50,317 nt of DNA, taken from Pontibacillus marinus BH030004 = DSM 16465 (lineage in GTDB: Bacteria; Bacillota; Bacilli; Bacillales; BH030062). Shown one piece after another: positions 1-50,317 of the stretch. A program made the position numbers and the translations under genes. Location: contig NZ_AULJ01000042.1 in the NCBI RefSeq assembly GCF_000425225.1, positions 1 through 50,317 on the forward strand, written 5' to 3'. Numbering within the stretch: the stretch's first letter is position 1; each line of letters starts with the position of its first letter. Under the pieces are notes generated by a model. It was not told where the DNA came from and ran no database searches. It saw nothing but the letters and a program-made list of their open reading frames with translations.

Positions 1-400
1 TAGTTCTAGGATGAGGTGTTCTAATTCCAAGGTAGTATAATCCTATCATGACAAGGGTCTAAGCAACTTCTGTGAATATGTTTTCCAATCAATATGTGGT
101 GGGAAAGTCCAAATAATGGTCCGTTAGTCTCCATAATCGCGTGGAGGGAAGGAAACGGCAAACTGTCGTGGTAACAAAGGGAAGACGAGACCCCGCAGGC
201 ACGAGGAGGCTCGGCTATACTATGGAGGTTCTACTAAAACCGCCACATCATGTGGCAACGTAGAACTACCCCACGTCGTGTGGGGCAACAACAGGCTTGC
301 CGTTTCACTGACCGCAACAAACTCCTCAACAGCAACGGACTCCTCTCATTATTATCTCGAAACCAAGTGTTCCACAAACGGGGGCTATTGTTGAACAAAG
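1..400 (+). repeat. Composite palindromic repeat, copy 1 (left part cut by window edge)
   Basis: This stretch holds no gene. It is the spacer (1-117) and type A hairpin (118-340) of the composite repeat, followed by its conserved tail (about 345-385, tatctcg...ccaagt...gggggct). The A hairpin has outer arms ggtccgtt (118-125) and aacggac (334-340). Its inner arms gaaacggcaa (152-161) and ttgccgtttc (297-306) pair perfectly. Inside is a cassette with gttctac/gtagaac arms (228-234, 260-266), the small palindrome gccacatcatgtggc (242-256) and the hairpin ccccac-N5-gtgggg (269-285). The spacer matches the reverse complement of the copy 4 spacer, so a type B hairpin probably lies just left of position 1. 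The shared core is shortened here. I do not recognise the family by name. Confidence 0.85.
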
Positions 401-405
401 AAATA

Positions 406-443
406 CAAAAAAACAAGCTCAGATTAGCTCTGAGCTTGTTTGT
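406..443 (-). terminator. Rho-independent terminator of the amidase gene
   Basis: A perfect inverted repeat (aacaagctcaga/tctgagcttgtt) is followed on the minus strand by a run of seven T. It lies just beyond the stop codon of the minus-strand amidase gene and separates it from repeat copy 1. Confidence 0.8.
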
Positions 444-449
444 GTGATT

Positions 450-2165
450 CTACTTATTCAAATATTCAATGACACCTTTAGCAATGCCCTTCGTAATTTT
501 CTCCTGAAAGCTCTTCGTTTGAACCGTTTTCCCCTCTTGAGGATTCGATAAAAAACCTAGTTCTAACAATAAAGCAGGCTGTCGATTTTCACGAATAACA
601 TGATAATCACCAAATCGTGCTTCGCGATTGTGGAGAGCCGTTGATTGAATCATTGCTCTCTGAACAGTTTGAGCAAAGTCGCGATCGCGCTTGTGATAAT
701 AATACGTTCCAATCCCAGACACACTAGGGGATTGAGGGAAACTATTATAGTGAAGGCTTAAAAATGCATCTGCACCCTTCACATTAGACATTGTAGCTCG
801 AGAGCTTAAGGATATATACGTATCATCCGTACGCGTTAAAATGACATTTGCACCGGCTAATCGAAGGCGTTCTGCTAATCGGTTAGCTGTTTTAATCGTT
901 AACTTCTTCTCATAAAAACCGTCATGACCAATAGTTCCAACATCTCTCCCGCCATGACCAGCATCAATAACGATTGTTTTATTTTTTAACGTTTGGTTTT
1001 TCTGAGACATTTGTTTGATATCTGTTTGACTGTTTGCTACGATCCAGTCCGCAACATAAGCCGTTTTATTATTGTATTCAATTTCATACCATTTGTTTTT
1101 ATGGCTTTTAACTACAAATTGATCGCCCATAGATGCTCGTCCAACAATAGCTGTATCTGTTCCTGGGCCTTTTCGGATGTTCGTAGCATTGTAGAGTAGG
1201 GTGATCCATTGTTTACTATTTGATTCAGTAACCGCCCCTCTTTCTACTAGCCAGTTAGCTACCCAACCTATTTGGCCGTTATCAAGTTTGATTTGATACC
1301 AAGCTTCTTTTTCTTGAAGGAAAGAAAGTTTATCTCCCTGTTTTACTTGAGCAATGACCTGACTCCCCAAGTTACCTTCACTACGTACATTGAGAATAGG
1401 TGTTTCCACCGTAACGGTACCTTTGGCTTGGGCTGTAGATGGGTTGTCATTGTTATTGTCTTCTTGTGTTGAAGCTGGTGCGGATTTCTTAATAAATTGT
1501 GAAGCTACCCATCCTTGATTGTTTTGATATGTAATGTTTGACCAATTTTCTTTTTCAGAGGTCACTGTAACTTTAGTACCTTTGTCTAGTTGGTCAATGA
1601 CTTCAGCTGTTAAAGATGGTTCTCCACGCACATTTAAGTTGTTTACCTGGACCGTTTTTTCCTCAGCTTTTTGCTCATCGGATGAAGCTGAGGCTGTTGT
1701 CGTAACACTTACATAGTCTTGATGTACCCAACCTTGTTCATCTTCATAATTAATTCGGATCCACTTTCCTTGTTCACCTGATTTCGTATAGGATGTTCCT
1801 TTGTTCATATGACCTAAAATGTCATGAGATGTACCTGGTCCTGAGCGAATTCGAAGGCGGTCAACATCAGAAGTTACTTTATCAACTGAACTCGTGCCCT
1901 TTAGGTCAACTAGCCATTTTGCTACCCAGCCTTTTGTAGAATCCATTTGAATTTGTACCCAGTTCCCTTTTTGTTGTATGACAGGATAAGATTCTCCTTC
2001 ATGAACTTGAGTAACCTGTTCATGTGATAAGCCAGGTCCTCCTCGAACATTTAAAGGCTCCACCTTAATGACCGCTGTACTCTCTGCTGAAATATCACTG
2101 CTCATTATGAAAAAAGAACCTATGATAAGAAAAAAGAGGAGCGTGGTGCGTTTTTTAAGTGTCAA
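450..2165 (-). CDS. Exported N-acetylmuramoyl-L-alanine amidase with five SH3b domains (YrvJ-like)
   Basis: A secreted cell-wall hydrolase, 571 aa, predicted to cut the amide bond between N-acetylmuramic acid and L-alanine in peptidoglycan. A signal peptide covers about residues 1-28 (KKR, hydrophobic core, then DISA). Five bacterial SH3 domains follow, at about 30-90, 95-155, 167-226, 246-310 and 318-380, each with an LNVR/LRIR-GPG start and a GWVA end. They should bind the wall. A C-terminal Amidase_3 domain (about 395-570) carries the zinc ligands in DAGHGG, YEKK and LHYN and the catalytic Glu in LLELGF. The start is TTG at 2165, preceded by aggagg at 9 nt. In B. subtilis, yrvJ also sits next to hisS. 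Here it is divergent from the next gene. Family assignment is firm; the physiological role (autolysis or cell separation) is inferred. Confidence 0.9.
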   Translation of the reverse strand: MTLKKRTTLLFFLIIGSFFIMSSDISAESTAVIKVEPLNVRGGPGLSHEQVTQVHEGESYPVIQQKGNWVQIQMDSTKGWVAKWLVDLKGTSSVDKVTSDVDRLRIRSGPGTSHDILGHMNKGTSYTKSGEQGKWIRINYEDEQGWVHQDYVSVTTTASASSDEQKAEEKTVQVNNLNVRGEPSLTAEVIDQLDKGTKVTVTSEKENWSNITYQNNQGWVASQFIKKSAPASTQEDNNNDNPSTAQAKGTVTVETPILNVRSEGNLGSQVIAQVKQGDKLSFLQEKEAWYQIKLDNGQIGWVANWLVERGAVTESNSKQWITLLYNATNIRKGPGTDTAIVGRASMGDQFVVKSHKNKWYEIEYNNKTAYVADWIVANSQTDIKQMSQKNQTLKNKTIVIDAGHGGRDVGTIGHDGFYEKKLTIKTANRLAERLRLAGANVILTRTDDTYISLSSRATMSNVKGADAFLSLHYNSFPQSPSVSGIGTYYYHKRDRDFAQTVQRAMIQSTALHNREARFGDYHVIRENRQPALLLELGFLSNPQEGKTVQTKSFQEKITKGIAKGVIEYLNK

Positions 2166-2355
2166 TGTCGTATTCCTCCTATTTTTTTAATCTAATTTAA
2201 GTAATCTGTCGCTACAAAAAACCGCCCTTACATTTCTAACATACTCATTGAGTAATTTTCCACTTTCGACAAAAAGTCCAATTATCCTCTTTTTTTACGT
2301 AAAAAAATCAAAGTTTAGGGAAAAATGAGTAGAAAGACTGAAGGGAGTTTTGATA

Positions 2356-2532
2356 GTGAGAGAAGGTCATAAGCAACAATCCTTTAATCGAACGAATAAA
2401 GATATATTCGGTGTGAACTTTCATGACTTTATCGAAAAAGATCCACACTTATCACGTATGGAAATGGCACAAGAATTTGGGGTATCTTTGAATGACGTTA
2501 AAAAATTAAAAGAAAGTCTGAATCGTGCTTGA
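2356..2532 (+). CDS. Small helix-turn-helix-like protein (YrzK-like)
   Basis: A short protein of about 58 aa. The C-terminal half (SRMEMAQEFGVSLNDVKKLK) looks like a helix-turn-helix of the sigma-region-4 type, so DNA binding is plausible but not shown. GTG at 2356 is chosen as the start because gggag at 2343-2347 lies 8 nt upstream. A TTG at 2350 is in frame but too close to it. The stop codon lies inside the -35 box of the hisS promoter. B. subtilis has a small gene, yrzK, in the same place before hisS. I believe this is its counterpart, from memory of gene order only. No function is known to me. Confidence 0.7.
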   Translation: MREGHKQQSFNRTNKDIFGVNFHDFIEKDPHLSRMEMAQEFGVSLNDVKKLKESLNRA

Positions 2533-2557
2533 CATTCCATATATACGGGATTATGAT
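2529..2557 (+). promoter_or_regulatory. SigA promoter of the hisS-aspS T-box transcript
   Basis: TTGACA (2529-2534), 17 nt, TATGAT (2552-2557). Transcription should start near 2564 and run into the T-box leader. The -35 box contains the TGA stop codon of the upstream small gene. Confidence 0.8.
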
Positions 2558-2563
2558 AGTAAT

Positions 2564-2864
2564 CAACTCATAAAGTATCTTGAATGAACGAAAATCCATA
2601 TACGAACCAAAGAGGGAAAGAGTAATAAAGAATCACTTGGCCAGAGAGGGAATGCCACAGGCTGGAAGCATTCCTGCAGCGTATCTTTATGAAAGACATT
2701 CCTTAGGTTCCTCATCGAACAGTTAAGCTTAGCTTAGTAGGTGTAGGACGTAGCAGGCGTTAACTGTTTAAGCGGAAGCCTTTGCTTCAATTAGGGTGGC
2801 AACGCGGGAACTCAACTCCCGTCCCTATTCGGTCAATGATCGAATATGGGACGGGAGTTTTTAT
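2564..2864 (+). promoter_or_regulatory. T-box riboswitch leader of hisS-aspS, aspartate-type specifier GAC
   Basis: T-box leaders bind uncharged tRNA and then permit antitermination. Stem I closes with gaacc/ggttc and ataaag/ctttat. The AGTA and GAA loop-E pieces frame a specifier read as GAA-A-GAC-A (GAC at 2695-2697). The conserved T-box agggtggcaacgcgg is at 2793-2807. The terminator (actcccgtccc/gggacgggagt plus T run) is at 2815-2864. The antiterminator bulge reads TGGC, which would pair with a tRNA whose discriminator base is G, as in tRNA-Asp. The Ala leader near 20850 has the same layout (GAA-C-GCT-A), which supports the specifier choice. Confidence 0.9.
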
Positions 2865-2913
2865 ATTATTCAAACAATTTTTAGATAAAATTAGCTCTTT
2901 TAGGAGGATGAAC

Positions 2914-4191
2914 ATGAGTTTTAAATTACCTCGTGGTACCCAGGATATTTTGCCTGGTGAAGTAGAGAAGTGGCAATATGTTGAATCAGTCTTATCCGAT
3001 TTATGTCGTCGTTATCATTATAAAGAGATCCGTACACCGATTTTTGAACATACAGAATTGTTTCAAAGAGGTGTAGGGGATTCGACAGATATTGTTCAAA
3101 AGGAAATGTACACATTTGAAGATCGCGGAGGTCGTAGTCTGACCCTTCGTCCTGAAGGGACAGCTTCCGTAGTACGTTCTTATGTGCAAAATAAACTTTA
3201 CGGACTTCCAAATCAGCCAACAAAGTTATTCTATTTTGGACCGATGTTCCGTTATGAGCGTCCACAACAAGGTCGTACAAGACAGTTTGTTCAATTTGGA
3301 ATTGAAGCTTTAGGAAGTGAAGATCCTGGTATTGATGCTGAAGTTATTGCGCTTGCTATGAACTCCTATCAAGAACTAGGCTTACGTTCATTAAAGCTCG
3401 TCTTAAACAGTCTGGGTGATAAGGAAAGTAGAGAAAATCACCGTCAAGCATTAATTGAGCACTTTAAACCTCATAAAGATGAGCTTTGTAACGATTGTCA
3501 ATCTCGTTTAGAGCAAAACCCAATGCGTGTGCTTGATTGTAAAAAGGATCGTGATCATCCTGCAATGAAGGACGCACCATCTATTTTAGAATATCTAAAT
3601 GATTACTCTCGTGAGTATTTCGAACAAGTTAAAGCTTATTTAGATCAACTAGGTATTCCATATGAAATTGATTCCAATCTTGTCCGTGGCTTAGATTATT
3701 ACAATCACACTGCTTTCGAAATCATGAGTGAAGCAGAAGGATTTGGCGCTATCACAACATTAAGTGGTGGAGGGCGCTACAACGGGCTTGTAGAGGAAAT
3801 TGGTGGCCCTGAATCACCTGGAATTGGTTTTGCTTTAAGTATTGAACGTTTACTTATGGCTTTAGAAGCTGAAGGAGTAGTGCTTCCAATTGAAGAGCAA
3901 TTAGATTGTTATATAGTCGCACTTGGTGATGAAGCGAAAAAAGAAGCTGCTGGTATTGTGTATCAGCTGCGTAAAGCTGGTATTCAGGTAGATAAGGATT
4001 ACGGACAGAAGAAGATTAAATCTCAATTTAAAGCAGCAGATCGCCTGCAATCCAAGTACGTTCTTGTGTTAGGTGAAGATGAACTTGCGAATAAGCAAAT
4101 CAATGTGAAGCGAATGGCAACAGGAGAACAAGAAACGATTGACATAGCTGACGTCGTTGAATATATGAAGAAGGAATTTAAGGGGGAGTAA
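2914..4191 (+). CDS. hisS: Histidyl-tRNA synthetase
   Basis: Class II aminoacyl-tRNA synthetase, 425 aa, that charges tRNA-His in the cytoplasm. The N terminus [14 protein letters not shown] is typical of the family. Motif 2 is in [11 protein letters not shown], the histidine-specific signature is [13 protein letters not shown], and motif 3 includes [11 protein letters not shown]. The C-terminal anticodon-binding domain starts near residue 330. ATG at 2914 is chosen because aggagg at 2902-2907 is 6 nt away and this fits the usual length (about 424 aa). The frame is open further upstream, but that stretch lies within the T-box leader. aspS starts 3 nt after the stop, so the two form one operon under the T-box. 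Confidence 0.97.
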
Positions 4192-4194
4192 ATC

Positions 4195-5985
4195 ATGAGC
4201 GGGCATCGTCAATTAAGCGGTCAAATCCGTGAAACACATGTAGGAGAGAAAGTACACTTAAAAGGTTGGGTACAAAAGCGTCGTGACTTAGGTGGCTTAA
4301 TCTTTATTGATTTAAGAGACCGTTCTGGAGTGGTTCAAGTTGTATTTAATCCAGAAAGATCATCTGAAGCGTTAGCGACAGCTGATAAAGTACGTAGCGA
4401 ATATGTGATCGAAGTTGCAGGGGATGTTGTAGCACGTGACGAAGGTGCTGTAAACGAAAACCTCGCAACAGGTCGAGTAGAGGTAATGGCAGACTCCATT
4501 TCGATCTTAAATAAATCGAAAAACCCTCCATTCCAACCTCAAGATGACTTAGATGTCGCTGAAGAATTACGTCTTAAGTATCGTTACTTAGACTTGCGAC
4601 GTAACCCAATGCAAGAAACATTTAAATTACGTCATAAGGCAACACAGTCTATTCGTAACTTCCTTAATGACGATGATTTCCTTGAGATGGAAACCCCGAT
4701 GCTAACAAAGAGTACCCCAGAGGGTGCGCGTGACTATCTTGTACCAAGCCGTGTACATGAAGGAGATTTTTATGCACTACCACAATCTCCACAGATCTTT
4801 AAACAGCTGATCATGATGTCTGGTTTTGAGAAGTACTACCAGATTGCACGTTGCTTCCGTGACGAAGACCTTCGTGCAGACCGTCAGCCTGAATTTACAC
4901 AGGTCGATATCGAGACGTCCTTCATGTCTAAAGACGAAATCATGGATATGACTGAACGTATGATGAAGAGAGTTATGAAAGATGTAAAAGATATTGAATT
5001 ACCAACACCATTTCCTCGTATGAAATATGATGAGGCGATGGAACGTTACGGTTCTGACAAGCCTGATACACGCTTCGGCTTAGAACTTGTTAATGTATCT
5101 GATGTTGTAAAAGCTTCTGAATTTAAAGTATTTAAAGGTGCTGTAGAATCAGGGGGAAGCGTCAGTGCGATTAACGTAAAAGGGAAAGCAAGCGAATTTT
5201 CTCGTAAAGATATTGATAAGCTTACTGAATTTGTGAAAATCTATGATGCTAAAGGTTTAGCTTGGGTGAAAGAAAATGAAGGTGAACTTCAAGGGCCAAT
5301 TGCTAAATTCCTTGAAGATGAAGTAGCAGCAGGCTTACGTGAGGCTCTTGAAATTGAAGAAGGAGACCTAATCCTTTTCGTTGCTGATAAGACATCTGTT
5401 GTTCATGAGAGTCTTGGTTCACTTCGTCAAAAGCTTGGTAGAGAGCTTGGTCTTATTGATGAAAGTCAGTTCAATTTCTTATGGGTAACGGACTGGCCAT
5501 TATTTGAATACGATGAGGATTTAGATCGCTATTTTGCTGCTCACCATCCATTTACAATGCCAGAGCGTGAAGACATTGATAAAATGTCAGATCAACCTGG
5601 AGAGACGAAAGCTCAAGCATACGACCTTGTATTAAATGGATATGAATTAGGCGGCGGAAGCCTTCGTATTTACGAAAAGGAACTTCAAGACAAAATGTTT
5701 GAAGTACTTGGTTTCTCTGAAGAGGAAGCAAAGGATCAATTCGGTTTCCTACTAGAGGCTTTAGAATATGGTGCTCCTCCACATGGCGGAATTGCGTTAG
5801 GTCTAGACCGTTTCACAATGATCTTAGCAGGTCGTACAAACTTACGCGACACCATTTTGTTCCCGAAAACAGCGTCAGCTTCAGACTTGTTAACACAAGC
5901 ACCGGATTCTGTAAGTGAGGAACAATTGAAGGAACTTCACCTTGAATTGAATGAAAAAGCTAAGGAAAATCAGAAAAATAAGTAG
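4195..5985 (+). CDS. aspS: Aspartyl-tRNA synthetase
   Basis: Class IIb synthetase, 596 aa, of the bacterial type, with an N-terminal OB-fold anticodon domain (about 1-110), a catalytic core and the bacterial GAD insertion domain (about 280-420). Visible motifs include RYLDLRR, the motif 2 region [16 protein letters not shown] and the motif 3 region [12 protein letters not shown]. It is co-transcribed with hisS, with ATG 3 nt after the hisS stop and aagggggag as ribosome binding site. The upstream leader carries an Asp-type specifier, so this second gene may be the one whose product the leader senses. Whether it charges only tRNA-Asp or also tRNA-Asn cannot be read from the sequence. Confidence 0.97.
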
Positions 5986-6008
5986 AAAAATTTACTGATT
6001 ATTAATCC

Positions 6009-6037
6009 TTGATAAGAAAAAGTAGGTATGCTACTAT
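6009..6037 (+). promoter_or_regulatory. SigA promoter of 6S RNA
   Basis: TTGATA (6009-6014), 17 nt, TACTAT (6032-6037). It lies in the aspS-tcdA gap just ahead of the structured RNA. Confidence 0.7.
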
Positions 6038-6043
6038 ACAAGT

Positions 6044-6258
6044 ACAACATTAAAGAAATCAATCCTGATGTGTTCGTCAGCCAACAAATCGTTTTGACCG
6101 AACATTTTTGAATACGGGAGCTTGAGTTTCTATATGGCGCACAAGCCTCATTTGCTTCAGAGGACTTGCAAAATATAGAGCAGGGCACCCACCTGCCGAG
6201 AGCGGGTTCAAAACATTGGGTTAATGACGGCACGATTGGGATTGATTCATGTACATAA
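6044..6258 (+). ncRNA. ssrS: 6S RNA (BsrA/SsrSA type)
   Basis: 6S RNA binds the SigA RNA polymerase holoenzyme and represses transcription in stationary phase. In B. subtilis one 6S RNA (BS190/6S-1) is encoded between aspS and yrvM, the same position as here. The sequence starts like that RNA (cctgatgtgttcgtcag) and folds end to end. gtaca (6042-6046) pairs with tgtac, and aatcaatcc (about 6057-6065) pairs with ggattgatt (about 6239-6247). Inner pairs lead to an apical hairpin, caagcctc...gaggacttg. The RNA is about 200 nt, bracketed by a promoter and a strong terminator. The exact ends are estimates. Confidence 0.85.
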
Positions 6259-6264
6259 CTGAGC

Positions 6265-6297
6265 AGACCTTAAGGAGAGCCTTAAGGTCTTTTTTAT
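6265..6297 (+). terminator. Terminator of 6S RNA
   Basis: A perfect 11-bp stem, agaccttaagg/ccttaaggtct, with an agag loop, followed by six T. Confidence 0.9.
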
Positions 6298-6388
6298 ACT
6301 TTAAATACATAAATCTAATTGTTTATCTTTAAAAAAGCAAAGGAATACTAAAATAGACAACTAAACACGTTACAAGGGGTGTACATAA

Positions 6389-7144: not shown

Positions 7145-7148
7145 CGGG

Positions 7149-9418: not shown

Positions 9419-9424
9419 TTGGAT

Positions 9425-11621: not shown

Positions 11622-11757
11622 GTCGATCGCTCCTTCATGTGTAGCGGGATTTTGCTATAGATGTTTAGTTCCACGCCCCTCATTACTTAACGGGCGCTTC
11701 CACTTTTCTTTTTACAATAAAGATCAAGTTGTTAAAATGCAAGAGACTTGCCATTCG

Positions 11758-18938: not shown

Positions 18939-18990
18939 GTTTTCGGTTTATCAGTTTAATGGCAGTAATATTGAATAAGCTAGTGCGTGG

Positions 18991-19525
18991 TGGTTCCGTT
19001 GCTTTTATGCAGAGCGGCGGGCTGTGGAACGGGTTGCTTTCCTGCGGACGAAGCGCCGAGCCTCCTCATTCGCAAGCTCTCTGCGGGGTCTCGTCACTCC
19101 GTTCTTCCGCTGGAGTCAACCCGTTCCACAGCCCACCTTGGCCGAATGGTGTATAACGAAACCGCAGCTATCGTGCGGTTTTCTGATTAAAAATATGTAG
19201 TTAAATTCTATATGCACCAAAGTGATCTAAAGCCTTATATGTAGAGGGTTTTAGGATCTGAAATACAGTTTCCTTAAGAATGAAGTTAAAAGATCTCAGC
19301 TATGGGTCCGTTAATCTACATACCAGCAAAGGGGTGAGGGAAACGGCAAACTCCCGCGGTAGAAAGGGCGGACGAGATCCCGCAGAGAGCTTGCGAACGA
19401 GGAAGCTCGGCCGGTCTTCCGCAGGAGTATTGCCGTTTCACCGATCCCCTTACTCTCACAAAAGCAACGGACCTCCTTAGTACTTTATCTCGATTCCAAG
19501 TCTTCAAGATAAGGGGCTTTAATTG
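18991..19525 (+). repeat. Composite palindromic repeat, copy 2 (B then A, no cassette)
   Basis: The 747-nt gap 18884-19630 holds no gene. After the terminator comes the type B hairpin, 18992-19163. Its perfect 18-bp stem pairs gggctgtggaacgggttg (19019-19036) with 19117-19134. A conserved spacer follows (19164-19304, including ccaaagtgatctaaagcctt). The type A hairpin is 19305-19473, with inner arms gaaacggcaa (19340-19349) and ttgccgtttc (19430-19439) extended by cccgcgg/ccgcagg. The tail is tatctcgattccaagtcttc, then ggggct, to about 19522. The A element lacks the double-hairpin cassette of copies 1, 3 and 4. The rest (to 19620) shows nothing clear. Confidence 0.85.
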
Positions 19526-20729: not shown

Positions 20730-21022
20730 ATATCCTAACGCTTTTAAACGAATACAGTAATACAAAGAAGGATCGAGTATGTGACAGACCATCTTTACAG
20801 AGAGGAATTCTCAGAGGCTGGAAAGAATTCTAGGTGAAGGGTCACAGAACGCTAGTCCGGAGTGCGGTTTTTAAAACATCGCCGGGTTTCGCCCCGTTAT
20901 AGCGGAACGAAGAGAATGCTCTTCATGAAGTGATGAACCTTTCGTTTAAGGTTCATAATCAGGGTGGTACCGCGGATTCCAACTCTCGTCCCTGCAGATA
21001 ATGCAGGACGGGAGTTTTTTTA
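20730..21022 (+). promoter_or_regulatory. T-box riboswitch leader of alaS, alanine specifier GCT
   Basis: A typical stem I apex (acagagagg...aggctggaaag). The specifier is read as GAA-C-GCT-A with GCT (Ala) at 20851-20853. The T-box agggtggtaccgcgg is at 20961-20975, and the terminator is actctcgtcc...ggacgggagt plus seven T (to about 21022). The bulge TGGT fits a tRNA with discriminator A, as in tRNA-Ala. This leader fills most of the 373-nt gap before alaS. Confidence 0.93.
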
Positions 21023-28324: not shown

Positions 28325-28386
28325 TGGGGAAAATTAGTTGGTTAGTTGTTAAACAATCTGACAGTAATCTGGAATAAAGCGTAGAG

Positions 28387-28985
28387 AGGTTCCGTTGCCA
28401 AATAGAGAGCGGGCGGGCTGGGAAATGGGTTGCTTTCCTGCGGACGAACTATCGAGCCTCCTCATCCGCTATTCGCTCCTTGCGGGGTCTCGCTAGCCCG
28501 TTTTTCCGCTGGAGTCAACCCATTTCCCAGCCCACCTTAGCCGAATGGTGAATAACGGAACCGCAGCTATCGTAAGGTTTTCTGATGTAGATTATGGGGT
28601 TGAGTCATATATGCACCAAAGTGATCTAAAGGCTTATATGTAGAGCTAAAATACAGTTTCCTTAAGCAAGAGATAAAATGATCTCAGCCATGGGTCCGTT
28701 AACTTTCATAACAGCAAAGGGGTGAGGAAAACGGCAAACTCCCGCGGTAGAAAGGGCGGACGAGATCCCGCAGAGAGCTTGCGAACGAGGAAGCTGAAAG
28801 TAAACATGGAAGATCGACTAAGACCGCCACATTGTGTGGCAACGTCGACCTACCCCACGTCGTGTGGGGCAGCAGGAGTATTGCCGTTTCACCGATCCCC
28901 TTACTCTCACAAAAGCAACGGACCTCAACCACATTTTATCTCGAATCCAAGTCTTCAAGATAAGGGGGGCTATGGTAGAATAAAT
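28387..28985 (+). repeat. Composite palindromic repeat, copy 3 (B then A, with cassette)
   Basis: This fills most of the 823-nt gap between greA and pbpI, which has no gene. The type B hairpin is 28388-28562, with the perfect 18-bp stem gggctgggaaatgggttg (28415-28432)/28516-28533. The spacer is 28563-28692, similar to copy 2. The type A hairpin is 28693-28924. Where copy 2 has a short loop, this copy has the cassette (about 28796-28870). Its parts are atcgac/gtcgac arms, gccacattgtgtggc, and ccccacgtcgtgtgggg. The tail (ttatctcgaatccaagtctt...ggggggct) ends near 28975. The last 75 nt before pbpI show only its ribosome site. Confidence 0.85.
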
Positions 28986-33947: not shown

Positions 33948-34590
33948 TTTATTCAGTATTATGGCAGGATTGTTGAAGACTTGAATCTGAGATATTGGTT
34001 AGGAGGAGTCCGTTGCTGTTGAGTAGTTTGTTGCGGTCAGTGAAACGGCAAGCCTGTTGTTGCCCCACACGACGTGGGGTAGTTCTACGTTGCCACATGA
34101 TGTGGCGGTTTTAGTAGAACCTCCATTGTATAGCCGAGCCTCCTCATACGCTACGCTCCTTGCGGGGTCTCGTCTTGCCTTTGTTACCACGACAGTTTGG
34201 CGTTTCCTTCCCTCCACGCGATTATGGAAACTAACGGACCATAATTTGGCTTTCCCCACCTCATATTGATTGGAAATCATAGTAAGAGAAGTTGCTCAGA
34301 CCCTTGTCATGATAGGATTAACCTGGAATTAGAACACTCTCTCCCAGAACTACGGCGGTTCCGTTAGTCACTATTCGGCTAAGGTGGGCTGTGGTACGGG
34401 TTGACTCCTCCGGAAAAACGGGCTAGCGAGACCCCGCAAGGAGCTTTAGCGAATGAGGAGACTCGATAGTTCGTCCGGGGAAAGCAACCCGTTCCACAGC
34501 CCACCGCACTCCACTAAAGAAACGGAACCATACGCACTTTATCTCGATTCCAAGTCTTCAACAATAGGGGGCTTTCATGGAAGAAGGGCT
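33948..34590 (-). repeat. Composite palindromic repeat, copy 4 (with cassette, terminal inverted repeats)
   Basis: The 830-nt gap 33818-34647 holds no gene. On the plus strand it reads end repeat 33969-33994 (attgttgaagacttgaa...), A hairpin 34008-34240, spacer 34241-34356, B hairpin 34357-34529, end repeat 34540-34565 (inverted copy of the first). In the minus orientation the order is B, spacer, A as in copies 2 and 3. The A cassette (ccccac-N5-gtgggg 34063-34079; gttctac/gtagaac; gccacatgatgtggc 34092-34106) is nearly identical to copy 1. The B stem 34386-34403/34485-34502 has one mismatch in 18. The spacer matches copy 1. Confidence 0.87.
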
Positions 34591-34606
34591 AAACAAAACC
34601 TAACAT

Positions 34607-34634
34607 AAAAAACCGCCAAAAAAGGCGGTTTTTC
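34607..34634. terminator. Bidirectional terminator after deoC
   Basis: Stem aaaaaaccgcc/ggcggttttt. It serves deoC on the minus strand. Confidence 0.8.
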
Positions 34635-37614: not shown

Positions 37615-38553
37615 CTATGGTTTACGAGCAATAATGGAAGTCCAATCTTCCATTTTGTTCGTCTCCACAATCTCAAAACCTGACTCTTCTAAACGAGCTT
37701 TCACTTCATTACGTTTATTTTGAATAATACCTGAAGTAATGAAATGGCCTCCCGATTTAAGAAGACGGAACGCATTATCTGTAAAACGAACAATAATTTC
37801 AGCAAGGATATTAGAAACAATAAGATCAGCTTCTACATCCACATTGTTCAGTAAGTTATTTTGCTTGGAATAAATTTTGTGCTCAGCCTGATTTAGCTTA
37901 GCGTTTATCGTAGTGCTTTTTACAGCTACATCATCCAAATCATAAGCATATACTTCTTTTGCACCGAGTAATACGGACGCAATACTTAACACACCAGAAC
38001 CTGCCCCAACATCAATGACAGTATCATTCTCTTGCAGGATTTGTTCAATAGCTTGGATACTTAACACAGTCGTTGGATGTGTACCTGTACCAAAAGCCAT
38101 ACCTGGGTCTAATTCAAGTATAATCTCATCACTAGAAACTGGCTCGTAATCTTCCCAGGTTGGTGTAATTGTAATACGTTCTGAAATCTTCACAGGCTTA
38201 TAATACTTTTTCCATGCTGTTGCCCAGTCTTCTTCATTAACTTCACTGATCGTGATGTTATTGTGACCAAGGTCAATATCATGAATTAACAAGTTGTTTA
38301 TAGCTTGCTTGATTTCATCAACGGTTTCCCCTAAAAAACTATTAACAGGAAGGTATGCTTTTACATACACACCTTCCGTTGGATAATCTTCGGGATTTAA
38401 ATCGTACATCTCACCCATGAAGGTATCTCGTTCTTTTACAAGGTCTTGTGGGTCTTCAATTACCACTCCACTTGCACCAGCTTCATGAAGGATATTTGAA
38501 ATGGGTTCAATCGCTTCATTCGTTGTATGAATACACATTTCAGACCATTTCAC
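37615..38553 (-). CDS. prmA: Ribosomal protein L11 methyltransferase PrmA (YqeT)
   Basis: An SAM-dependent enzyme, about 312 aa, that methylates ribosomal protein L11. The N-terminal substrate domain includes ISNILHEAGASGVVIEDP. The methyltransferase part carries LDPGMAFGTGTHPTT, VIDVGAGSGVLSIASVLLG and the NPF-like NILAEII. GTG 38553 is chosen because homologs start at the MKWSE position and aagtgag is suitably placed. TTG 38562 would add three residues. It is between dnaJ (19-28 nt) and rsmE in the operon. Confidence 0.95.
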   Translation of the reverse strand: MKWSEMCIHTTNEAIEPISNILHEAGASGVVIEDPQDLVKERDTFMGEMYDLNPEDYPTEGVYVKAYLPVNSFLGETVDEIKQAINNLLIHDIDLGHNNITISEVNEEDWATAWKKYYKPVKISERITITPTWEDYEPVSSDEIILELDPGMAFGTGTHPTTVLSIQAIEQILQENDTVIDVGAGSGVLSIASVLLGAKEVYAYDLDDVAVKSTTINAKLNQAEHKIYSKQNNLLNNVDVEADLIVSNILAEIIVRFTDNAFRLLKSGGHFITSGIIQNKRNEVKARLEESGFEIVETNKMEDWTSIIARKP

Positions 38554-43516: not shown

Positions 43517-43530
43517 GATGATCACCTCTG

Positions 43531-43557
43531 TTAGCACTCGAATAATGTGAGTGCTAA
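43531..43557 (-). promoter_or_regulatory. CIRCE operator of the hrcA operon
   Basis: A perfect inverted repeat TTAGCACTC-N9-GAGTGCTAA, the HrcA binding site, directly before the hrcA ribosome site. Confidence 0.97.
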
Positions 43558-43567
43558 ATCTAATAAT

Positions 43568-43596
43568 AAGTTATCAAATGCGATTCACCTTGTCAA
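43568..43596 (-). promoter_or_regulatory. SigA promoter of the hrcA operon
   Basis: On the minus strand, TTGACA (43596-43591), 17 nt, TAACTT (43573-43568). The start point falls next to the CIRCE, so HrcA binding would block initiation. Confidence 0.75.
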
Positions 43597-43606
43597 CGAT
43601 ATTTAA

Positions 43607-44752: not shown

Positions 44753-44779
44753 GCTTGTCACGTTCCTTTTAAAAAGTTT

Positions 44780-44812
44780 AAAAACCGCAAGAATAGCATC
44801 CTGCGGTTTTTG
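44780..44812 (-). terminator. Terminator after lepA
   Basis: On the minus strand, stem aaaaccgca/tgcggtttt ending in TTTTT. Confidence 0.75.
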
Positions 44813-44874
44813 TCTAGAGATTAGTATTGTTCATTTATCATAATCCTCTAATTGCTGGTAATCTTGCTCGTGTA

Positions 44875-46704
44875 TTAATCGTTGTCGGTATCCATTTCAA
44901 GAACGGCCATGAACGCCTCTTGAGGCACTTCAACAGAACCAACCATTTTCATACGCTTTTTACCTTCTTTTTGCTTCTCAAGAAGTTTACGTTTACGGGA
45001 AATGTCACCGCCGTAACATTTTGAAAGAACGTTTTTACGCATCGCTTTAATGGTCGAACGAGCCACGATCTTATTCCCAATCGCTGCCTGAACTGGCACC
45101 TCGAATTGCTGTCTTGGAATGAGGTCCTTCAACTTATTCGCAATAGCTTTGCCTCGCTCATAAGCGAAGTCACGGTGAACAATAAAGGATAATGCATCAA
45201 TCGTATCATTGTTTAACAAGATATCCATTTTGACTAGGTTGGATGCACGGTAACCCACAAGGTCATAGTCAAAGGATGCGTACCCTTTCGTTTGAGATTT
45301 AAGTTGATCGAAGAAATCATACACGATCTCTGAAAGTGGAATCTCATACGTAATATTCACTCGATTATCATCAAGGTATTGCATATCCTGAAAGGCGCCA
45401 CGCTTTGCCTGACAAATTTCCATAACAGAACCAACATAATCGTTTGGAACCATAATGGTTGCTTTTACAAACGGTTCACGCACTTCTGATACAGATTGGG
45501 TATCTGGCATCATAGATGGATTATCCACGGTAATGGTTTCGCCATCTGTTAGTTCAACTTCGTAAATAACACTTGGCGCAGTTGTAATAAGGTCAATACC
45601 AAATTCACGCTCTATACGTTCTTGGATTATCTCCATGTGTAGTAAACCAAGGAATCCACAACGGAAACCAAAACCTAGTGCCTGAGAGGTTTCTGCTTCG
45701 TATTGTAGAGAAGAGTCATTTAACTCTAATCGCTCCAGTGCTTCTCTTAGGTCATTATAGTTTGACGCATCAACTGGGAAGATCCCACAGAACACCATTG
45801 GGTTCATTTTCTTATAACCCGGTAATGGTTCAGAAGCTGGTCGCTCAGCTGATGTAATGGTATCACCCACTCGAGAGTCACTCACATTTTTAATAGAAGC
45901 CGTTAAATAACCTACATCCCCTACAGTTAAGGAATCTTTAGGTGTTGGCTTAGGGTTAAACACACCAATCTCAGTGACCTCGAATTCTTTCTCAGTCTGC
46001 ATCATACGAATTCGTTGACCAACACGTACTGTGCCTTCCTTAATACTGATTGAAGCGATAACACCTCGATAAGGATCATATAATGAGTCAAAAATAAGTG
46101 CTTTCAATGGATCTTCTGGCTCACCTTCTGGAGCTGGAACACGTTCTACAATTGCTTCTAGAATATCGTCGATTCCTATTCCAGATTTCCCTGAAGCGTG
46201 AATAACTTCATCTTTCGTTACGCCTAGTAAATCTTCTAATTCTTTTGTTACACGTTCTGGATCTGCTGCTGGTAAATCAATTTTATTAATAACAGGTATG
46301 ATTTCAAGATCATTATCAAGCGCTAAGTATAAGTTCGCTAGCGTCTGAGCTTCAATTCCTTGAGCAGCATCAACCACTAAAAGTACTCCGTCACAAGCAG
46401 CTAAACTACGAGATACTTCATACGTAAAGTCTACGTGACCTGGTGTATCAATTAAGTGAAATAAATAATCTTCCCCGTTAGCTGCTCCGTAACGCAACTG
46501 AACCGCATTTAGCTTAATTGTAATACCACGTTCACGTTCTAAGTCCATTGCATCAAGAAATTGCTCTTTCATTTCACGTTGAGTTAAAGCTTTCGTTCTT
46601 TCTAAAATTCTATCGGCTAAAGTTGATTTGCCGTGGTCTATATGAGCGATAATCGAAAAATTACGCACATTATCTTGTTTAATTTGGTTGTTACTCACAT
46701 TCAT
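44875..46704 (-). CDS. lepA: Elongation factor 4 (LepA)
   Basis: A ribosome-associated translational GTPase of about 609 aa related to EF-G. It has the GTP-binding motifs [17 protein letters not shown] and NKIDLP, domains II and III, an EF-G V-like domain ([14 protein letters not shown]) and the LepA-specific C-terminal domain ([27 protein letters not shown]). The likely start is ATG 46704 or GTG 46698 behind taggagtg. An upstream ATG at 46728 lacks a good ribosome site. It lies downstream of a terminator, so it is transcribed apart from spoIIP. Confidence 0.97.
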
Positions 46705-46861
46705 CACTCCTACTTTATACCGCAACAATCGCTAGCTTAGATTATAGCAATGGAATAGGGATACTTCAACGAAAAGTCCAATATCCTATTATAAATGGGC
46801 ACTTGTATAAGAAATTATTTTTAAATTAAAGATGATTAAAGGTAAGGGTAGCCGGCATAAA

Positions 46862-46900
46862 TGAGGCGCTTGTCTTAGGATGTAGACAAGCGCCTTATTT
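46862..46900 (-). terminator. Terminator after the spoIIP-yqxA pair
   Basis: On the minus strand, a perfect 12-bp stem aggcgcttgtct/agacaagcgcct with an 8-nt loop. Confidence 0.75.
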
Positions 46901-46914
46901 TACAATCCACCTTA

Positions 46915-47262
46915 TTAAAAGAATACTTGGACAAATTGATAAACGACCATAATCATTTGATTGTACATCCATTGCACTGACTTTTCGAGCGTAACCGCTA
47001 CCTTTTGAATTCCATGACTAGATTGTAACTCTTCATACTTTTTTTGCTTCGCATCTACTGACACTTGTTGAAAATCTTGACCTAATACTTTAACTTCTAC
47101 TTTTCCAGTATCGACATGACGAGTTTGAACTGCTTCTTGAAATGTCTCACTTTCGTATCCTCGCATCTTGATCATACCTTGGCTAGCTTGGTTCAAGCCA
47201 ACCAGCACACCACCTAAAAATAAGATCACCATCACAAGAAATGTCATTGTCATTCGTACCAT
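46915..47262 (-). CDS. yqxA: YqxA-like DUF3679 protein
   Basis: A 115-aa protein with one N-terminal transmembrane helix (MTFLVMVILFLGGVLVGLNQ), a short hydrophilic middle, and a second hydrophobic stretch at the C terminus (MIMVVYQFVQVFF). The position between spoIIP and lepA matches B. subtilis yqxA. No function is known. It starts 14 nt after spoIIP, behind aaggagctga, so it is probably made with SpoIIP in the sporangium. Confidence 0.8.
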   Translation of the reverse strand: MVRMTMTFLVMVILFLGGVLVGLNQASQGMIKMRGYESETFQEAVQTRHVDTGKVEVKVLGQDFQQVSVDAKQKKYEELQSSHGIQKVAVTLEKSVQWMYNQMIMVVYQFVQVFF

Positions 47263-47276
47263 TTAGGCTCAGCTCC

Positions 47277-48449
47277 TTAATTACCGTTCACTTTTTCAGC
47301 CTGCCAGTAGTAGTCGCTAAAGACTTCTGCAAATGCATCAGCTGTTCGATATAGCTCCTCTAAATTACTACTTACTCCACCGAACTCTATTACGATTGAA
47401 TTACTTGAAAGATCTTGATTAAATACACCATTTGTTCCTTGACCTTTTTTCTCTGTCACACCTCGACTGATCCCTGGATATTTCTTTTCGAGCTGTTTGT
47501 GTAAATCCCAAGCTAATTTGGCATTCTTTTCATAGTTCGGATTGTCCCCACCAACTACAAAAAACAAGCGAGCGTAAGATTTACCCTTTATTTCTTTAGT
47601 TGTGAAGGACTTGTCCGAATGCCAATCTCTATGAAGGTCAAAAAAGAATTGAAGGTTATCATTTTGCTTTATAGCTTGTGCAACGACTGGTCTAGACATT
47701 TCATAGGATTCGTAATATTTCATTCCATTATTTAATAACTTTCCGGTTATATCCGATTTATCAATATTTGCACCTATCCCATTATTCTCTAAACTTTTCT
47801 TAAGCCTATCACCAACCATGGTTATATTCGCCTTTGAATGATAGGCATCATCGGCGACTGTCCCTGGTGGAAGTAAAGGTAAAAATGATTCACGGTTATG
47901 AGAATGATAAATAAATACAACATCCCGTTCACCAGTTGTCTGAACTGGATCTTTTTCTTCAGCCTTAGGTGGATCAGGAGTTTCTTCATCATTTATGACA
48001 GCTTCTTTTTCCTCATCAAACACTTCCATTGGGGGTGAAGATTCTATCGGCATATTTGTATAATCCGTTCCTTCACCAGCCACAATGATCTTCCCATCGT
48101 AAGCTGCAAATCCAGGTAGCTCTCTCCCTAATAAAGACCTTGGATCATCAGGTCTAATCGATGTAGCACTCTGGAAAACGAGCTGAGTGATTTCAATATC
48201 CTCTTGATCTTCAGGATAAGCCTCTTTATAAAGGCGATTTTCCATCCCCATCAAATGAAGAAAAGACCCTCCTGAAATTTGACCTGTCCAATGATGAACA
48301 GAAGAAGAAGATAATCTATAAGCAGGTTGTATCGACGTTAACAACCCAATCAGCAAAAACAAGGCTATGACAGAAAAAAGAAATACACCACTTCGTTTGT
48401 ACCAACTCTTTAACTCTTTATGAATAAAAGAAAAATTCTTTTTAGACAC
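47277..48449 (-). CDS. spoIIP: Stage II sporulation protein P
   Basis: A membrane-anchored peptidoglycan amidase/endopeptidase of the SpoIIDMP complex, which thins septal wall and drives engulfment. About 390 aa: a basic head, one transmembrane helix (about 20-40), an Asp/Glu/Pro-rich linker (about 130-165), then the SpoIIP catalytic domain with VVFIYHSHNRESFLP, the zinc-site region and IVIEFGGVSSNLEE. GTG 48449 (MSKKNFSF) fits gagggag best; GTG 48458 is inside that site. It lies after gpr, as in B. subtilis. Confidence 0.95.
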   Translation of the reverse strand: MSKKNFSFIHKELKSWYKRSGVFLFSVIALFLLIGLLTSIQPAYRLSSSSVHHWTGQISGGSFLHLMGMENRLYKEAYPEDQEDIEITQLVFQSATSIRPDDPRSLLGRELPGFAAYDGKIIVAGEGTDYTNMPIESSPPMEVFDEEKEAVINDEETPDPPKAEEKDPVQTTGERDVVFIYHSHNRESFLPLLPPGTVADDAYHSKANITMVGDRLKKSLENNGIGANIDKSDITGKLLNNGMKYYESYEMSRPVVAQAIKQNDNLQFFFDLHRDWHSDKSFTTKEIKGKSYARLFFVVGGDNPNYEKNAKLAWDLHKQLEKKYPGISRGVTEKKGQGTNGVFNQDLSSNSIVIEFGGVSSNLEELYRTADAFAEVFSDYYWQAEKVNGN

Positions 48450-48539
48450 GAGTTCCACTCCCTCTGCTCATTTCTAGCAACTCTAGTAAATCTATATGAG
48501 CGTAAGAGAGAGAGTAGAACTCTTCTTCTAATTTTTATA

Positions 48540-49643
48540 TTATCTTGTAAACGCGTCCTCTGTATCCGTATCTACATCCTCATGTAAAGCAGCATTCATA
48601 CCAGAAGCTATAACATGAGCCATGTCTTTCATAAATCCATCTACTTCTTTTGGGGTAACCATTAAATTATGACCGATTGGTGTTAATACCTCTTGAATAA
48701 GTTTTCTTTTTTCTTGATCTGATAGACCGCCTATCATACCAAGAATCGCCTCGCGTTGCTTATCATTAGGCAAATCTTCTTCTGTTAATTTCTTTCTTTC
48801 TCCAAAATCCATTCCGGCTGGTGTGAGTGCTTTTGATGGGTCATCTTTTGTATTCCATTCGCGTCCGAAGTGTTTCAATACATAGTCAATCGTATCGCTT
48901 GTAATGGTGACAGCATCCACAACAGTTGGAACCCCTACTGCAATCACCGGAATACCAAGCGTCTCTACACTTAATTCTTTTCGTTTATTCCCAACACCTG
49001 ATCCAGGATGAATACCTGTATCGGAGATTTGAATCGTTGCATTTACCCGACTAATTGATCTTGCTGCTAAAGCATCTACAGCAATGACAAAGTCAGGTTT
49101 CACTTTTTCAATAACCCCAAAAATAATGTCACTCGTCTCAATACCTGTAACCCCCATAACTCCAGGCGTTACTGATGATACTGGACGAAAGCCCTTATCC
49201 ACTCTTTCTGGCTGGAGCTCAAATAAGTGGCTGGTTACTAAAAGTTTTTCAGCCACCATTGGCCCTAGCGCATCAGGAGTGACATTGTCATTTCCTAATC
49301 CTACGACTAAACAAGTAGCATCTTTCGGAAGGTCCGCTTTTCCAATAATCCCTTCTAGCTCTCTTGCAAAAATGGATGCAGTGTGGTGCTCTAGTTCCGT
49401 ATCATGGTTTCGAATCGCTTGTGACTCAATCGTGATATAGGTGCCTGGCTTTTTTCCCATTCGTTCAGCACCTGACTCATCAATTTCAACATATGTGACT
49501 TTAACTTCTCCTTCTTCTTGTTCCTTAACTGTGACACCTTGGTGACCTTTCTTATTTTTCTTTTCTTCCTTTTCAGCTATCATTTCGTTAGCTTCTAGAG
49601 CAAGGTCTGTTCGAATTTGGAAACGCTCCAGATCGAGTGACAT
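48540..49643 (-). CDS. gpr: Spore germination protease GPR
   Basis: An atypical aspartic endoprotease of 367 aa that degrades small acid-soluble spore proteins at the start of germination. It is made as a zymogen; the N terminus [17 protein letters not shown] carries the auto-processing region. Conserved pieces are [49 protein letters not shown] and [13 protein letters not shown] forespore-type promoter lies upstream. The start ATG follows agtggaggt. Confidence 0.95.
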
Positions 49644-49667
49644 ATGAAAACCTCCACTTTTTTTTAT

Positions 49668-49697
49668 TAGGATTGCCGCGAGCTGATTCTTTCATAC
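49668..49697 (-). promoter_or_regulatory. Likely SigF/SigG (forespore) promoter of gpr
   Basis: On the minus strand, GTATG (49697-49693), 18 nt, AATCCTA (49674-49668), close to the SigG pattern GHATR-N18-CATNNTA. Forespore control is known for gpr in B. subtilis. Confidence 0.6.
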
Positions 49698-49731
49698 AAG
49701 ATAATTTACTTGTCACACTTTGATAATTCTA

Positions 49732-49760
49732 TTGAAAACTTGCACAGCCTTTGGTAAAAT
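49732..49760 (+). promoter_or_regulatory. SigA promoter of rpsT
   Basis: TTGAAA (49732-49737), 17 nt, TAAAAT (49755-49760), with a TGG extension before the -10. Confidence 0.8.
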
Positions 49761-49813
49761 GTCTCTTGTTCCAAGTTAAAGTAGGCTTGAATCTCTTTAG
49801 GAGGTGAAAATAG

Positions 49814-50080
49814 ATGCCAAACATTAAATCTGCGAAAAAACGTGTTGTTACACAAAACGCTAGCCGTGCTCAAAACCAGTCTTTCAAAGCAGACATGCGT
49901 TCTGCTGTGAAGCGTGTTGAGAACCTAGTAAGTGAGAACAAAAAACAAGAAGCGGAAGAAGCGTTGAAATCAGCTGCTCAAAAAATTGACAAAGCTGTAG
50001 GTAAAGGCCTTATCCACAAAAACAACGGTAACCGCAAAAAAGCTCGTCTTTCTAAGAAAGTACAAGAGCTTACTGCTTAA
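49814..50080 (+). CDS. rpsT: 30S ribosomal protein S20
   Basis: An 88-aa basic protein that binds 16S rRNA early in 30S assembly. MPNIKSAKKRVVTQNASRAQNQ and the closing GLIHKNNGNRKKARLSKKVQ are family hallmarks. Single gene with its own promoter and terminator, divergent from gpr as in B. subtilis. The ribosome site is aggaggtga. Confidence 0.98.
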   Translation: MPNIKSAKKRVVTQNASRAQNQSFKADMRSAVKRVENLVSENKKQEAEEALKSAAQKIDKAVGKGLIHKNNGNRKKARLSKKVQELTA

Positions 50081-50130
50081 TAACGATCCCTTTATTATGA
50101 CCAACAACAACGGCCCTTGCCTTGGGTCGT

Positions 50131-50175
50131 AAAAACATCTGCTTTTGGCTTTATGTCGAAGGTAGATGTTTTTTT
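50131..50175 (+). terminator. Terminator after rpsT
   Basis: Stem aaaaacatct/agatgttttt with a 23-nt loop, followed by TTTATTTT. Confidence 0.75.
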
Positions 50176-50211
50176 ATTTTGATCTGTTTTATAAGAAAAT
50201 TGCTAATGGAT

Positions 50212-50317
50212 TTATTCAGTAATATGGCAGGATTGTTGAAGACTTGAAATTGAGAGGAGTCCGTTGCTGTTGAGTAGTTTGTTGCGGTCAGTGAAACGGC
50301 AAGCCTGTTGTGGAAGA
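50212..50317 (-). repeat. Composite palindromic repeat, copy 5 (cut by window edge)
   Basis: These last 106 nt match copy 4 from 33948 on, almost base for base. Shared parts are tttattcagta-tatggcagg, the end repeat attgttgaagacttgaa (from 50232), gtccgttgctgttgagtag (from 50259) and gaaacggcaagcctgttg. The match stops where copy 4 enters its cassette. Copy 5 instead reads tggaaga, which fits the cassette-free copy 2 (reverse strand cctgcggaaga). Confidence 0.8.

What the first reader, a model, noticed from the sequence alone, without database searches (positions are those of the whole stretch)
1..50317. Five copies of an unrecognised composite palindromic repeat at operon boundaries
Seen directly: copies at about 1-400, 18991-19525, 28387-28985, 33948-34590 and 50212-end share a fixed architecture of B hairpin, spacer, A hairpin and tail. 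Copies 1-3 are in plus orientation and 4-5 in minus. All lie between transcription units, after yrvJ, yrzQ, greA, upstream of sigK and deoC, and after rpsT. Copies 1, 4 and 5 form one subfamily and copies 2 and 3 another, by spacer sequence. About one copy per 10 kb suggests hundreds per genome. I know no named family that fits. Inference: a non-autonomous mobile element or a widespread structured RNA/DNA element.
Basis: partly seen in the sequence, partly recalled or inferred. Interest (0 to 1): 0.7.

Follow-up and report, generated by a model that had tools for sequence, protein, structure and literature searches.

The report
Hairpin mobile element linked to IS1595
The repeated hairpins between genes in this bacterium belong to a family of small mobile DNA elements found in many Bacillus relatives, whose likely mover is an IS1595-type transposase; in this species the copies have lost the mover's end signals and now resemble each other, probably through recombination.

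Summary
In detail: five copies (two cut by the contig ends) of a composite T–B–spacer–A–T element. It is not wholly uncatalogued: Rfam RF01690 (Bacillaceae-1) is a 67-nt module nested in copies 1, 3 and 4. B and A are inverted versions of one ~127-nt hairpin ("core"), for which no Rfam match was found; it occurs in 30 of 151 genomes sampled across the class (own genome included) and is kept by compensatory changes. In other genera the core sits inside small elements with inverted ends GGCTNTGTTAAA-N6-TGTTGATTT and 8-bp target duplications (23 of 28 end pairs within two mismatches; 6.6% in mismatched controls), with filled and empty sites among horikoshii-group genomes. In congener G006 two IS1595-family transposase genes lie between the same ends with perfect 8-bp duplications; congener G001 has a 480-bp element with these ends, T palindromes, core and RF01690 together. 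Best reading: a non-autonomous IS1595-type element. Against a simple label: in the window's genome and its sister the copies end at T, without those ends or a detectable duplication, and no IS1595 transposase was found there. Paralogues are more alike than orthologues (8 of 8), pointing to gene conversion. How the T-bounded form spread is unresolved.

The parts
1..106 (+). Copy 1: spacer, S4 type; its B hairpin lies beyond the contig start
112..345 (+). Copy 1: A hairpin (core model R1 at 141-246, 31 bits) with nested RF01690
218..284 (+). Rfam RF01690 Bacillaceae-1 module in copy 1
   Evidence: 63.9 bits
346..395 (+). Copy 1: T end
18947..18979 (+). Copy 2: left T palindrome (GGCAG type)
18991..19165 (+). 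Copy 2: B hairpin; core model R1 at 19017-19136 on the minus strand, 60 bits
19146..19305 (+). Copy 2: spacer, S2 type
19306..19478 (+). Copy 2: A hairpin; R1 at 19328-19452 plus, 35 bits
19484..19531 (+). Copy 2: right T palindrome (CCCC type)
28346..28378 (+). Copy 3: left T palindrome
28387..28564 (+). Copy 3: B hairpin; R1 at 28413-28535 minus, 54 bits
28545..28693 (+). Copy 3: spacer, S2 type
28694..28926 (+). Copy 3: A hairpin with nested RF01690 (R1 gave no hit here)
28802..28868 (+). Rfam RF01690 module in copy 3
   Evidence: 63.6 bits
28933..28984 (+). Copy 3: right T palindrome
33948..33997 (-). Copy 4: T end (GGCAG type)
33999..34246 (-). Copy 4: A hairpin; R1 at 34102-34217 minus, 24 bits
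34064..34130 (-). Rfam RF01690 module in copy 4
   Evidence: 64.5 bits
34247..34353 (-). Copy 4: spacer, S4 type
34354..34535 (-). Copy 4: B hairpin; R1 at 34384-34504 plus, 58 bits
34536..34585 (-). Copy 4: T end (CCCCC type)
50211..50250 (-). Copy 5: T end
50254..50317 (-). Copy 5: start of the A hairpin, cut by the contig end

Best explanation
The core hairpin is the cargo of a non-autonomous transposable element moved in trans by IS1595-family transposases. Shown here: outside the window's species the core lies between inverted ends GGCTNTGTTAAA-N6-TGTTGATTT flanked by 8-bp duplications; the same ends and duplications bound IS1595 transposase genes in the window's own genus; sites with and without the element exist. 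Inferred: the transposase recognises those ends and pastes the element into AT-rich 8-bp targets. In the window's lineage (G000 and its sister G002) the element is a longer composite: two core hairpins in inverted order, RF01690 nested in a hairpin of some copies, and a T palindrome at each end; it lacks the IS1595 ends, so it is probably no longer moved by IS1595. Its copies are mostly old where this could be tested (shared with the sister species) and are kept alike by gene conversion or ectopic recombination between hairpins (shown as paralogues more alike than orthologues and as different interior types at the same site; the enzymatic route is inferred).
For: 28 distinct pairs of GGCTNTGTTAAA ends (each end with at most 1 mismatch, 100-1000 bp apart; two pairs in L386 overlap): the 8-mers outside them agree within 2 mismatches in 23 of 28, perfectly in 12; mismatched partners 6.6%; flanks shifted by 1-3 bases 0-5 of 28. 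25 of the 28 enclose an R1 core hit, in L171 and L199 a partial one. Filled/empty: site D filled in G206 and G205, empty in G207, where I read one 8-bp target against two (2 mismatches) in G206; site B with a perfect 8-bp duplication in G207, filled also in G206 and G208, empty in G205; a core insertion in L187 present in CH28_1T and G207, absent in G206 and G208, collapsed in G205. IS1595 transposases between the same ends in congener G006: L433, 1459 bp, duplication TTTAATTA; L431, 2418 bp, duplication TTTTACTA, both perfect; NCBIfam NF033547 at 207-209 bits, cut-off 75. Congener G001, L351: 480-bp element with these ends, perfect duplication TTCATTTT, T palindromes, core (24.7 bits) and RF01690 inside; G007 similar, 923 bp, 3-mismatch duplication. 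Structure: 61 double-change cells against 14.5 in shuffles. Gene conversion: orthologue scores below the best own paralogue in 8 of 8.
Against: Around 79 composites of G000/G002 the IS1595 end is hardly commoner than in shuffles (6 of 158 ends within 2 mismatches, about 4.4 expected), and no duplication was found outside the T ends of 59 anchored rows (some anchors are imprecise and a few rows are both-strand repeats). PF12762 is missing from 16 of 19 genomes searched, G000 and G002 among them, and also the three horikoshii-group and three Neobacillus genomes searched where short elements were seen, so the proposed mover is not found in most carriers examined. The sharp common T boundary is not what slow decay of IS1595 ends would leave. 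5 of 28 end pairs fail the duplication test (L171, L175, L326, L353, one of two in L386). All support is comparative; no transposition was observed.
Confidence: 0.7

Rival explanations
1. REPIN/BIME-like element: the inverted hairpin pair is mobilised by a RAYT (Y1, REP-associated tyrosine transposase), without target duplication.
For: B and A form an inverted hairpin doublet; the genome has three Y1_Tnp matches; no duplication outside the T ends.
Against: The two RAYT genes whose flanks were read have other palindromes beside them, and module BLAST found no core module beside any of the three except an RF01690 stretch 1.3 kb from one; the three RAYT proteins have no tblastn match in 939 kb around 119 core places; congeners' elements have inverted ends plus 8-bp duplications.
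Confidence: 0.07
2. A functional structured RNA or 3'-end element: the hairpins are kept because their transcripts work (transcript ends, RNA stability or a small RNA), and RF01690 is a genuine sRNA.
For: Strong paired changes; intergenic places; Rfam and Weinberg et al. list RF01690 as an RNA (passages).
Against: Presence/absence at the same site between close relatives; target duplications; hairpin pairing can equally be kept by transposition or replication constraints; no expression data seen. Not exclusive with the best explanation.
Confidence: 0.1
3. In the window's lineage the T-to-T unit is itself a cassette moved or swapped by a site-specific recombinase acting on the palindromic T sites.
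For: Sharp, shared T ends, as a rule one of the CCCCC and one of the GGCAG kind per copy; no duplication; at the L041 site G000 has an S2-type interior and G002 an S4-type interior in the opposite orientation between the same ends, and the types also differ at L010 and L068.
Against: No recombinase was looked for or found next to copies; plain gene conversion between hairpins explains the swap; T palindromes also lie inside IS1595-ended elements of G001 and G007.
Confidence: 0.1

Closest known systems
IS1595 insertion-sequence family and its non-autonomous derivatives
   Same: Core elements of other species and congeners share ends and 8-bp duplications with IS1595 elements found here in the same genus; 8-bp duplications of the family, and terminal GG of its eukaryotic relatives, are described in PMC8101967 (passages).
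   Different: Window copies have neither the ends nor a detectable duplication; the cargo is a structured hairpin and no transposase.
Rfam RF01690 Bacillaceae-1 RNA
   Same: 67-nt module above the gathering score in window copies 1, 3 and 4, and inside the elements of G001 and G007.
   Different: Only a nested module; it also sits in another repeat family in this genome, and the core itself had no Rfam match.
REPIN / BIME with RAYT
   Same: Pair of inverted intergenic hairpins in many copies (REPIN abstract, PMC3116915).
   Different: Hairpins of ~127 nt, IS1595-type ends and 8-bp duplications in relatives, no RAYT link found.
bcr1 and other bacterial MITEs (RUP, NEMIS, ERIC)
   Same: Short, non-coding, hairpin-forming, often next to genes (listed together in PMC3733652, passage).
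   Different: Sequence relation to bcr1 not tested; their movers are not compared here.
Bhal-1/Bhal-2 stem-loop families of B. halodurans
   Same: Intergenic stem-loop repeats of 74-76 bp, 36 and 50 copies (PMC2267715, passages).
   Different: Their sequences were not seen, so identity with the core could not be tested.

Membership tests
IS1595-derived non-autonomous element (MITE) | Inverted ends shared with an IS1595 insertion sequence | tested here: met
   For core elements of other species and congeners: same GGCTNTGTTAAA-N6-TGTTGAT ends as L433/L431.
IS1595-derived non-autonomous element (MITE) | The same, for the window-type copies of G000/G002 | tested here: not met
   6 of 158 outer flanks within 2 mismatches, about 4.4 expected; in the own-genome loci and G002 stretches only one end pair turned up, 2.3 kb apart and without a duplication. 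Window copies are therefore called descendants, not members.
IS1595-derived non-autonomous element (MITE) | 8-bp target duplication | tested here: met
   23 of 28 pairs within 2 mismatches, null 6.6%, only in register.
IS1595-derived non-autonomous element (MITE) | 8-bp target duplication, for window-type copies | tested here: not met
   59 anchored rows, several lengths and offsets, no excess beyond 0.08 in match fraction.
IS1595-derived non-autonomous element (MITE) | Empty target site in a relative | tested here: met
   Sites B and D, L187 insertion. For window-type copies no clean empty site was found.
IS1595-derived non-autonomous element (MITE) | Moved by an IS1595 transposase | not testable with these tools
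   Needs a transposition assay.
Rfam RF01690 Bacillaceae-1 | Score above the gathering threshold | tested here: met
   3 of 5 window copies, 63.6-64.5 bits against 35; applies to the 67-nt module only.
REPIN (RAYT-associated) | Neighbouring RAYT with matching palindromes | tested here: not met
bcr1 of the B. cereus group | Sequence homology | not tested

The most novel reading that the evidence does not exclude
In the lineage of the window's species a transposon derivative gave up its transposase-recognised ends and became a T-bounded cassette that spreads and swaps its interior by recombination at palindromic T sites or at its hairpins, i.e. a high-copy repeat family that persists and homogenises without the mover that founded it; RF01690 'RNA' would then be a second-order passenger of such cassettes.
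Probability: 0.2. Interest if true: 0.8.

Novelty: new variant of a known kind. Interest (0 to 1): 0.57.

Why it matters
It gives a likely origin and mover for a hairpin repeat present in 30 of 151 genomes sampled across the class and without an Rfam match, explains why a catalogued 'RNA' (RF01690) is found scattered in many copies, and offers a natural case of a transposon-derived repeat that seems to have lost its ends yet is kept uniform across a genome. Such repeats also break assemblies: by my count, 30 of 77 contigs of this genome have a core hit starting within about 210 bases of their first base.

Tried and rejected
RAYT mobiliser: rejected for the core (the flanks of the third RAYT, L123, were not read by eye). 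Direct duplication or IS1595 ends around window-type copies: looked for, not found. Clean empty site for window-type copies in sister G002: of the composites with both flanks in the fetched G002 DNA, L010, L011, L022, L028, L041, L044, L048, L068, L095 and window copies 2 and 3 (11 of 11 that I list) all have element sequence in G002 too (at L010 only part of it). The copy-4/C63 site is element-free in G002 but its flanks are too diverged to read a junction, and the half copy L097 is absent from G002. A DNA search of 61 relatives with copy 4 matched 25, and congener G003 had no match. G085: 13 of 14 fetched cores share near-identical flanks of at least 60 bp on each side, so they ride in some longer repeat whose nature was not resolved. 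R1 found no core in L349 and L352 of congeners at E 0.01. Core motif as a literature search term: no bacterial repeat paper among the 20 of 27 listed. The recalled 190-bp B. subtilis repeat (genome paper of 1997) was searched once and could not be tested. Of eight plasmid hits of the IS1595 end viewed first, three show a second end with an 8-bp duplication (L422, L423 perfect, L425 one mismatch); the other five do not within about 2.5 kb. Coordinates used were off by one base and were corrected.

Papers: PMC2864571, PMC2267715, PMC3733652, PMC12306157 and PMC8101967 were seen as passages; PMC3116915 as abstract and outline; others only in search listings. The statement that the core is not described in print rests on the searches in one open-access library.
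Full report
OBSERVATION. The five places hold one repeat family. Repeat finding gives direct pairs of 153-171 nt at 85-91% between copies 2 and 3 and inverted pairs of 143-160 nt at 92-99% between copies 1 and 4, and the sequences read as described. Module comparison confirms plus orientation for copies 1-3 and minus for 4-5, spacer type S4 in copies 1 and 4, and S2 in copies 2 and 3; copies 1 and 5 are cut by the ends of the contig, which is the window itself, so the spacer of copy 5 is not seen.

COPY NUMBER. In its genome (G000, 4.28 Mb, 77 contigs) there are 65 RF01690 matches at E 0.001 or better. DNA searches with copies 4 and 2 listed 101 and 99 matching stretches with only 40 candidates scored each. 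A script found 81 rows of complete composites, 39 in 800 kb of sister genome G002 and 42 in the fetched own-genome loci; the 42 are 40 distinct copies, two being reported on both strands. This is a sample, not a census. A DNA search of 61 relatives matched 25; congener G003 had none.

THE CORE HAIRPIN. B and A both contain the motif GAGACCCCGCA...GAGGAGGCTC or close variants. Cores read from these are hairpins of about 127 nt beginning GTTGATT and ending AATCAAC. 29 of 33 non-redundant cores were aligned; four were left out, and the 33 had been chosen for the exact motif and for intact outer stems, so those columns are conserved by choice of rows. The consensus has 31 pairs, 11 with changes on both sides; 61 double-change cells against 14.5 in shuffles, and 4-17 when the partner is slid. 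The covariance model R1 finds both hairpins of copy 2, B of copies 3 and 4, and A of copies 1 and 4 (24-60 bits); A of copy 3 and the stub of copy 5 were not reported. R1 scores 135 hits among 150 scored of 549 candidates in G000; 30 of 151 genomes drawn across the class have a hit, G000 included (strict filters). Rfam gave no match at the core in 16 loci nor in the 7 of 10 later loci that carry it, apart from the RF01690 module itself in two.

WHAT BOUNDS THE CORE ELSEWHERE. Among genomes of the Sutcliffiella (Bacillus) horikoshii group, core insertions are polymorphic. In L187 the element is present in CH28_1T and G207, absent in G206 and G208, and reduced to its outer stems in G205. At site D (L357 9356-9548) G206 and G205 are filled and G207 is empty; reading G206 by eye, two 8-mers differing at 2 positions flank the element (its right end has 3 mismatches to the consensus) where G207 has one. 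At site B (L356 1343-1536) G207 shows a perfect 8-bp duplication, G206 and G208 are filled, G205 is empty, and G209 could not be read. At site A one genome is filled and four are empty, but the ends are degenerate. The better-preserved copies show ends GGCTCTGTTAAA...TTTAACAGAGCC. Searching loci for this end gave, after removing duplicates, 28 inverted pairs 100-1000 bp apart: the flanking 8-mers agree within two mismatches in 23 of 28 (12 perfect), against 6.6% for mismatched partners and 0-5 of 28 when shifted by 1-3 bases. The five failures are L171, L175, L326, L353 and one of two overlapping pairs in L386. 25 of 28 enclose a core hit, a partial one in L171 and L199; the other three are L169, L422 and L423.

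THE LIKELY MOVER. On plasmids the same ends enclose small passenger genes with 8-bp duplications in three of the eight regions viewed first: L422, L423 (GNAT gene) and L425. A search of 19 genomes for the IS1595 transposase domain PF12762 found matches in 3: G005, G006 and, partial, G213. In G006 two open transposase genes are bounded by these ends with perfect 8-bp duplications (L433, 1459 bp; L431, 2418 bp with further ORFs). NCBIfam names them IS1595 family (207-209 bits, cut-off 75). In G005 an IS1595 gene lies next to a stretch with core-like motifs and another such end (L430), where R1 scores only 12-17 bits. The family is described with 8-bp duplications (PMC8101967, passages).

THE WINDOW'S GENUS. 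Congener G001 has a 480-bp element with these ends, a perfect duplication, T palindromes at both sides, a core and RF01690 (L351). G007 has a 923-bp version with a 3-mismatch duplication (L353). These link the window's architecture to IS1595-type elements. G000 and G002 have no PF12762 match, and around 79 of their composites the IS1595 end is hardly commoner than in shuffles (6 of 158 ends against about 4.4); outside the T ends of 59 anchored rows no duplication is detectable. So window-type copies fail two defining tests of an IS1595 MITE and are described here as descendants.

AGE AND UPKEEP. Eleven composites with both flanks in the fetched G002 DNA have element sequence there as well (list in Tried and rejected). 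Yet for the 8 copies whose orthologue was paired, the best paralogue in G000 scores higher than the orthologue in all 8 (caution: same-strand BLAST scores of elements that may differ in type). At the L041 site G000 carries an S2-type interior and G002 an S4-type interior in the opposite orientation between matching ends; the types also differ at L010 and L068.

MECHANISM. Shown: ends, duplications, filled/empty sites, IS1595 genes with the same ends, and core, T and RF01690 together in one element with a duplicated target. Inferred: trans-mobilisation by IS1595 transposase; preference for AT-rich targets near terminators (seen by eye at several sites, not counted); loss of the ends in the G000/G002 lineage followed by homogenisation. 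Open: how the T-bounded form reached so many sites, and whether the hairpin has a use in DNA or RNA form.

NOVELTY. The kind (non-autonomous derivative of an insertion sequence) is known. The core family, its IS1595 link, the placing of RF01690 as a nested module, and the end-less high-copy state were not met in the papers found (searches listed in Tried and rejected), in a library that lacks most subscription journals.

Noticed in passing
window 33948-34607: Copy 4 sits at a synteny break: its two flanks lie about 67 kb apart on opposite strands in G002, and apart in other congeners; either a repeat-mediated inversion in G000 or a misjoin at the repeat.
   Followed up: partly
window 37616-37634: G002 has about 33 kb between sequences that are adjacent here.
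   Followed up: no
L076, L077, L083, L091, L124 1360-1580; fragment near window 11656-11710: A second repeat family (TCTAGCTCCAGCGCC ... CGCTTGCGCTTTTCTTA) hosts RF01690, sometimes in tandem; L076 and L091 lack it in G002, with short direct repeats at the ends here, and L077 and L083 also differ.
   Followed up: partly
L122, L124: RAYT genes of this genome have their own palindromes beside them: GTGCCTGACCCCC on both sides of one, GGGACGGT after another.
   Followed up: partly
G002:C1:2708920-2709520: At the site corresponding to copy 4's sigK side, G002 keeps T-like ends but the interior is a tandem array of about 18-bp units.
   Followed up: no
L420-L429: IS1595-type ends next to GrpB, CPBP protease, DUF1706 and other genes on plasmids of Peribacillus, Aneurinibacillus, Alkaliphilus, a record titled Arthrobacter citreus, and Enterococcus; three have both ends and duplications.
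   Followed up: partly
L182, L212, L270: Core-pattern matches in records titled Gemmatimonadales MAG, Pseudomonas sp. ISL-84 and Arthrobacter beigongshangensis; possible mislabelling, contamination or transfer.
   Followed up: no
L304-L317: In G085, 13 of 14 fetched cores share near-identical flanks of at least 60 bp, so the core rides in a longer repeat there.
   Followed up: partly
window 6059-6246; 2601-2829; 20756-20996: 6S RNA and two T-box leaders.
   Followed up: no
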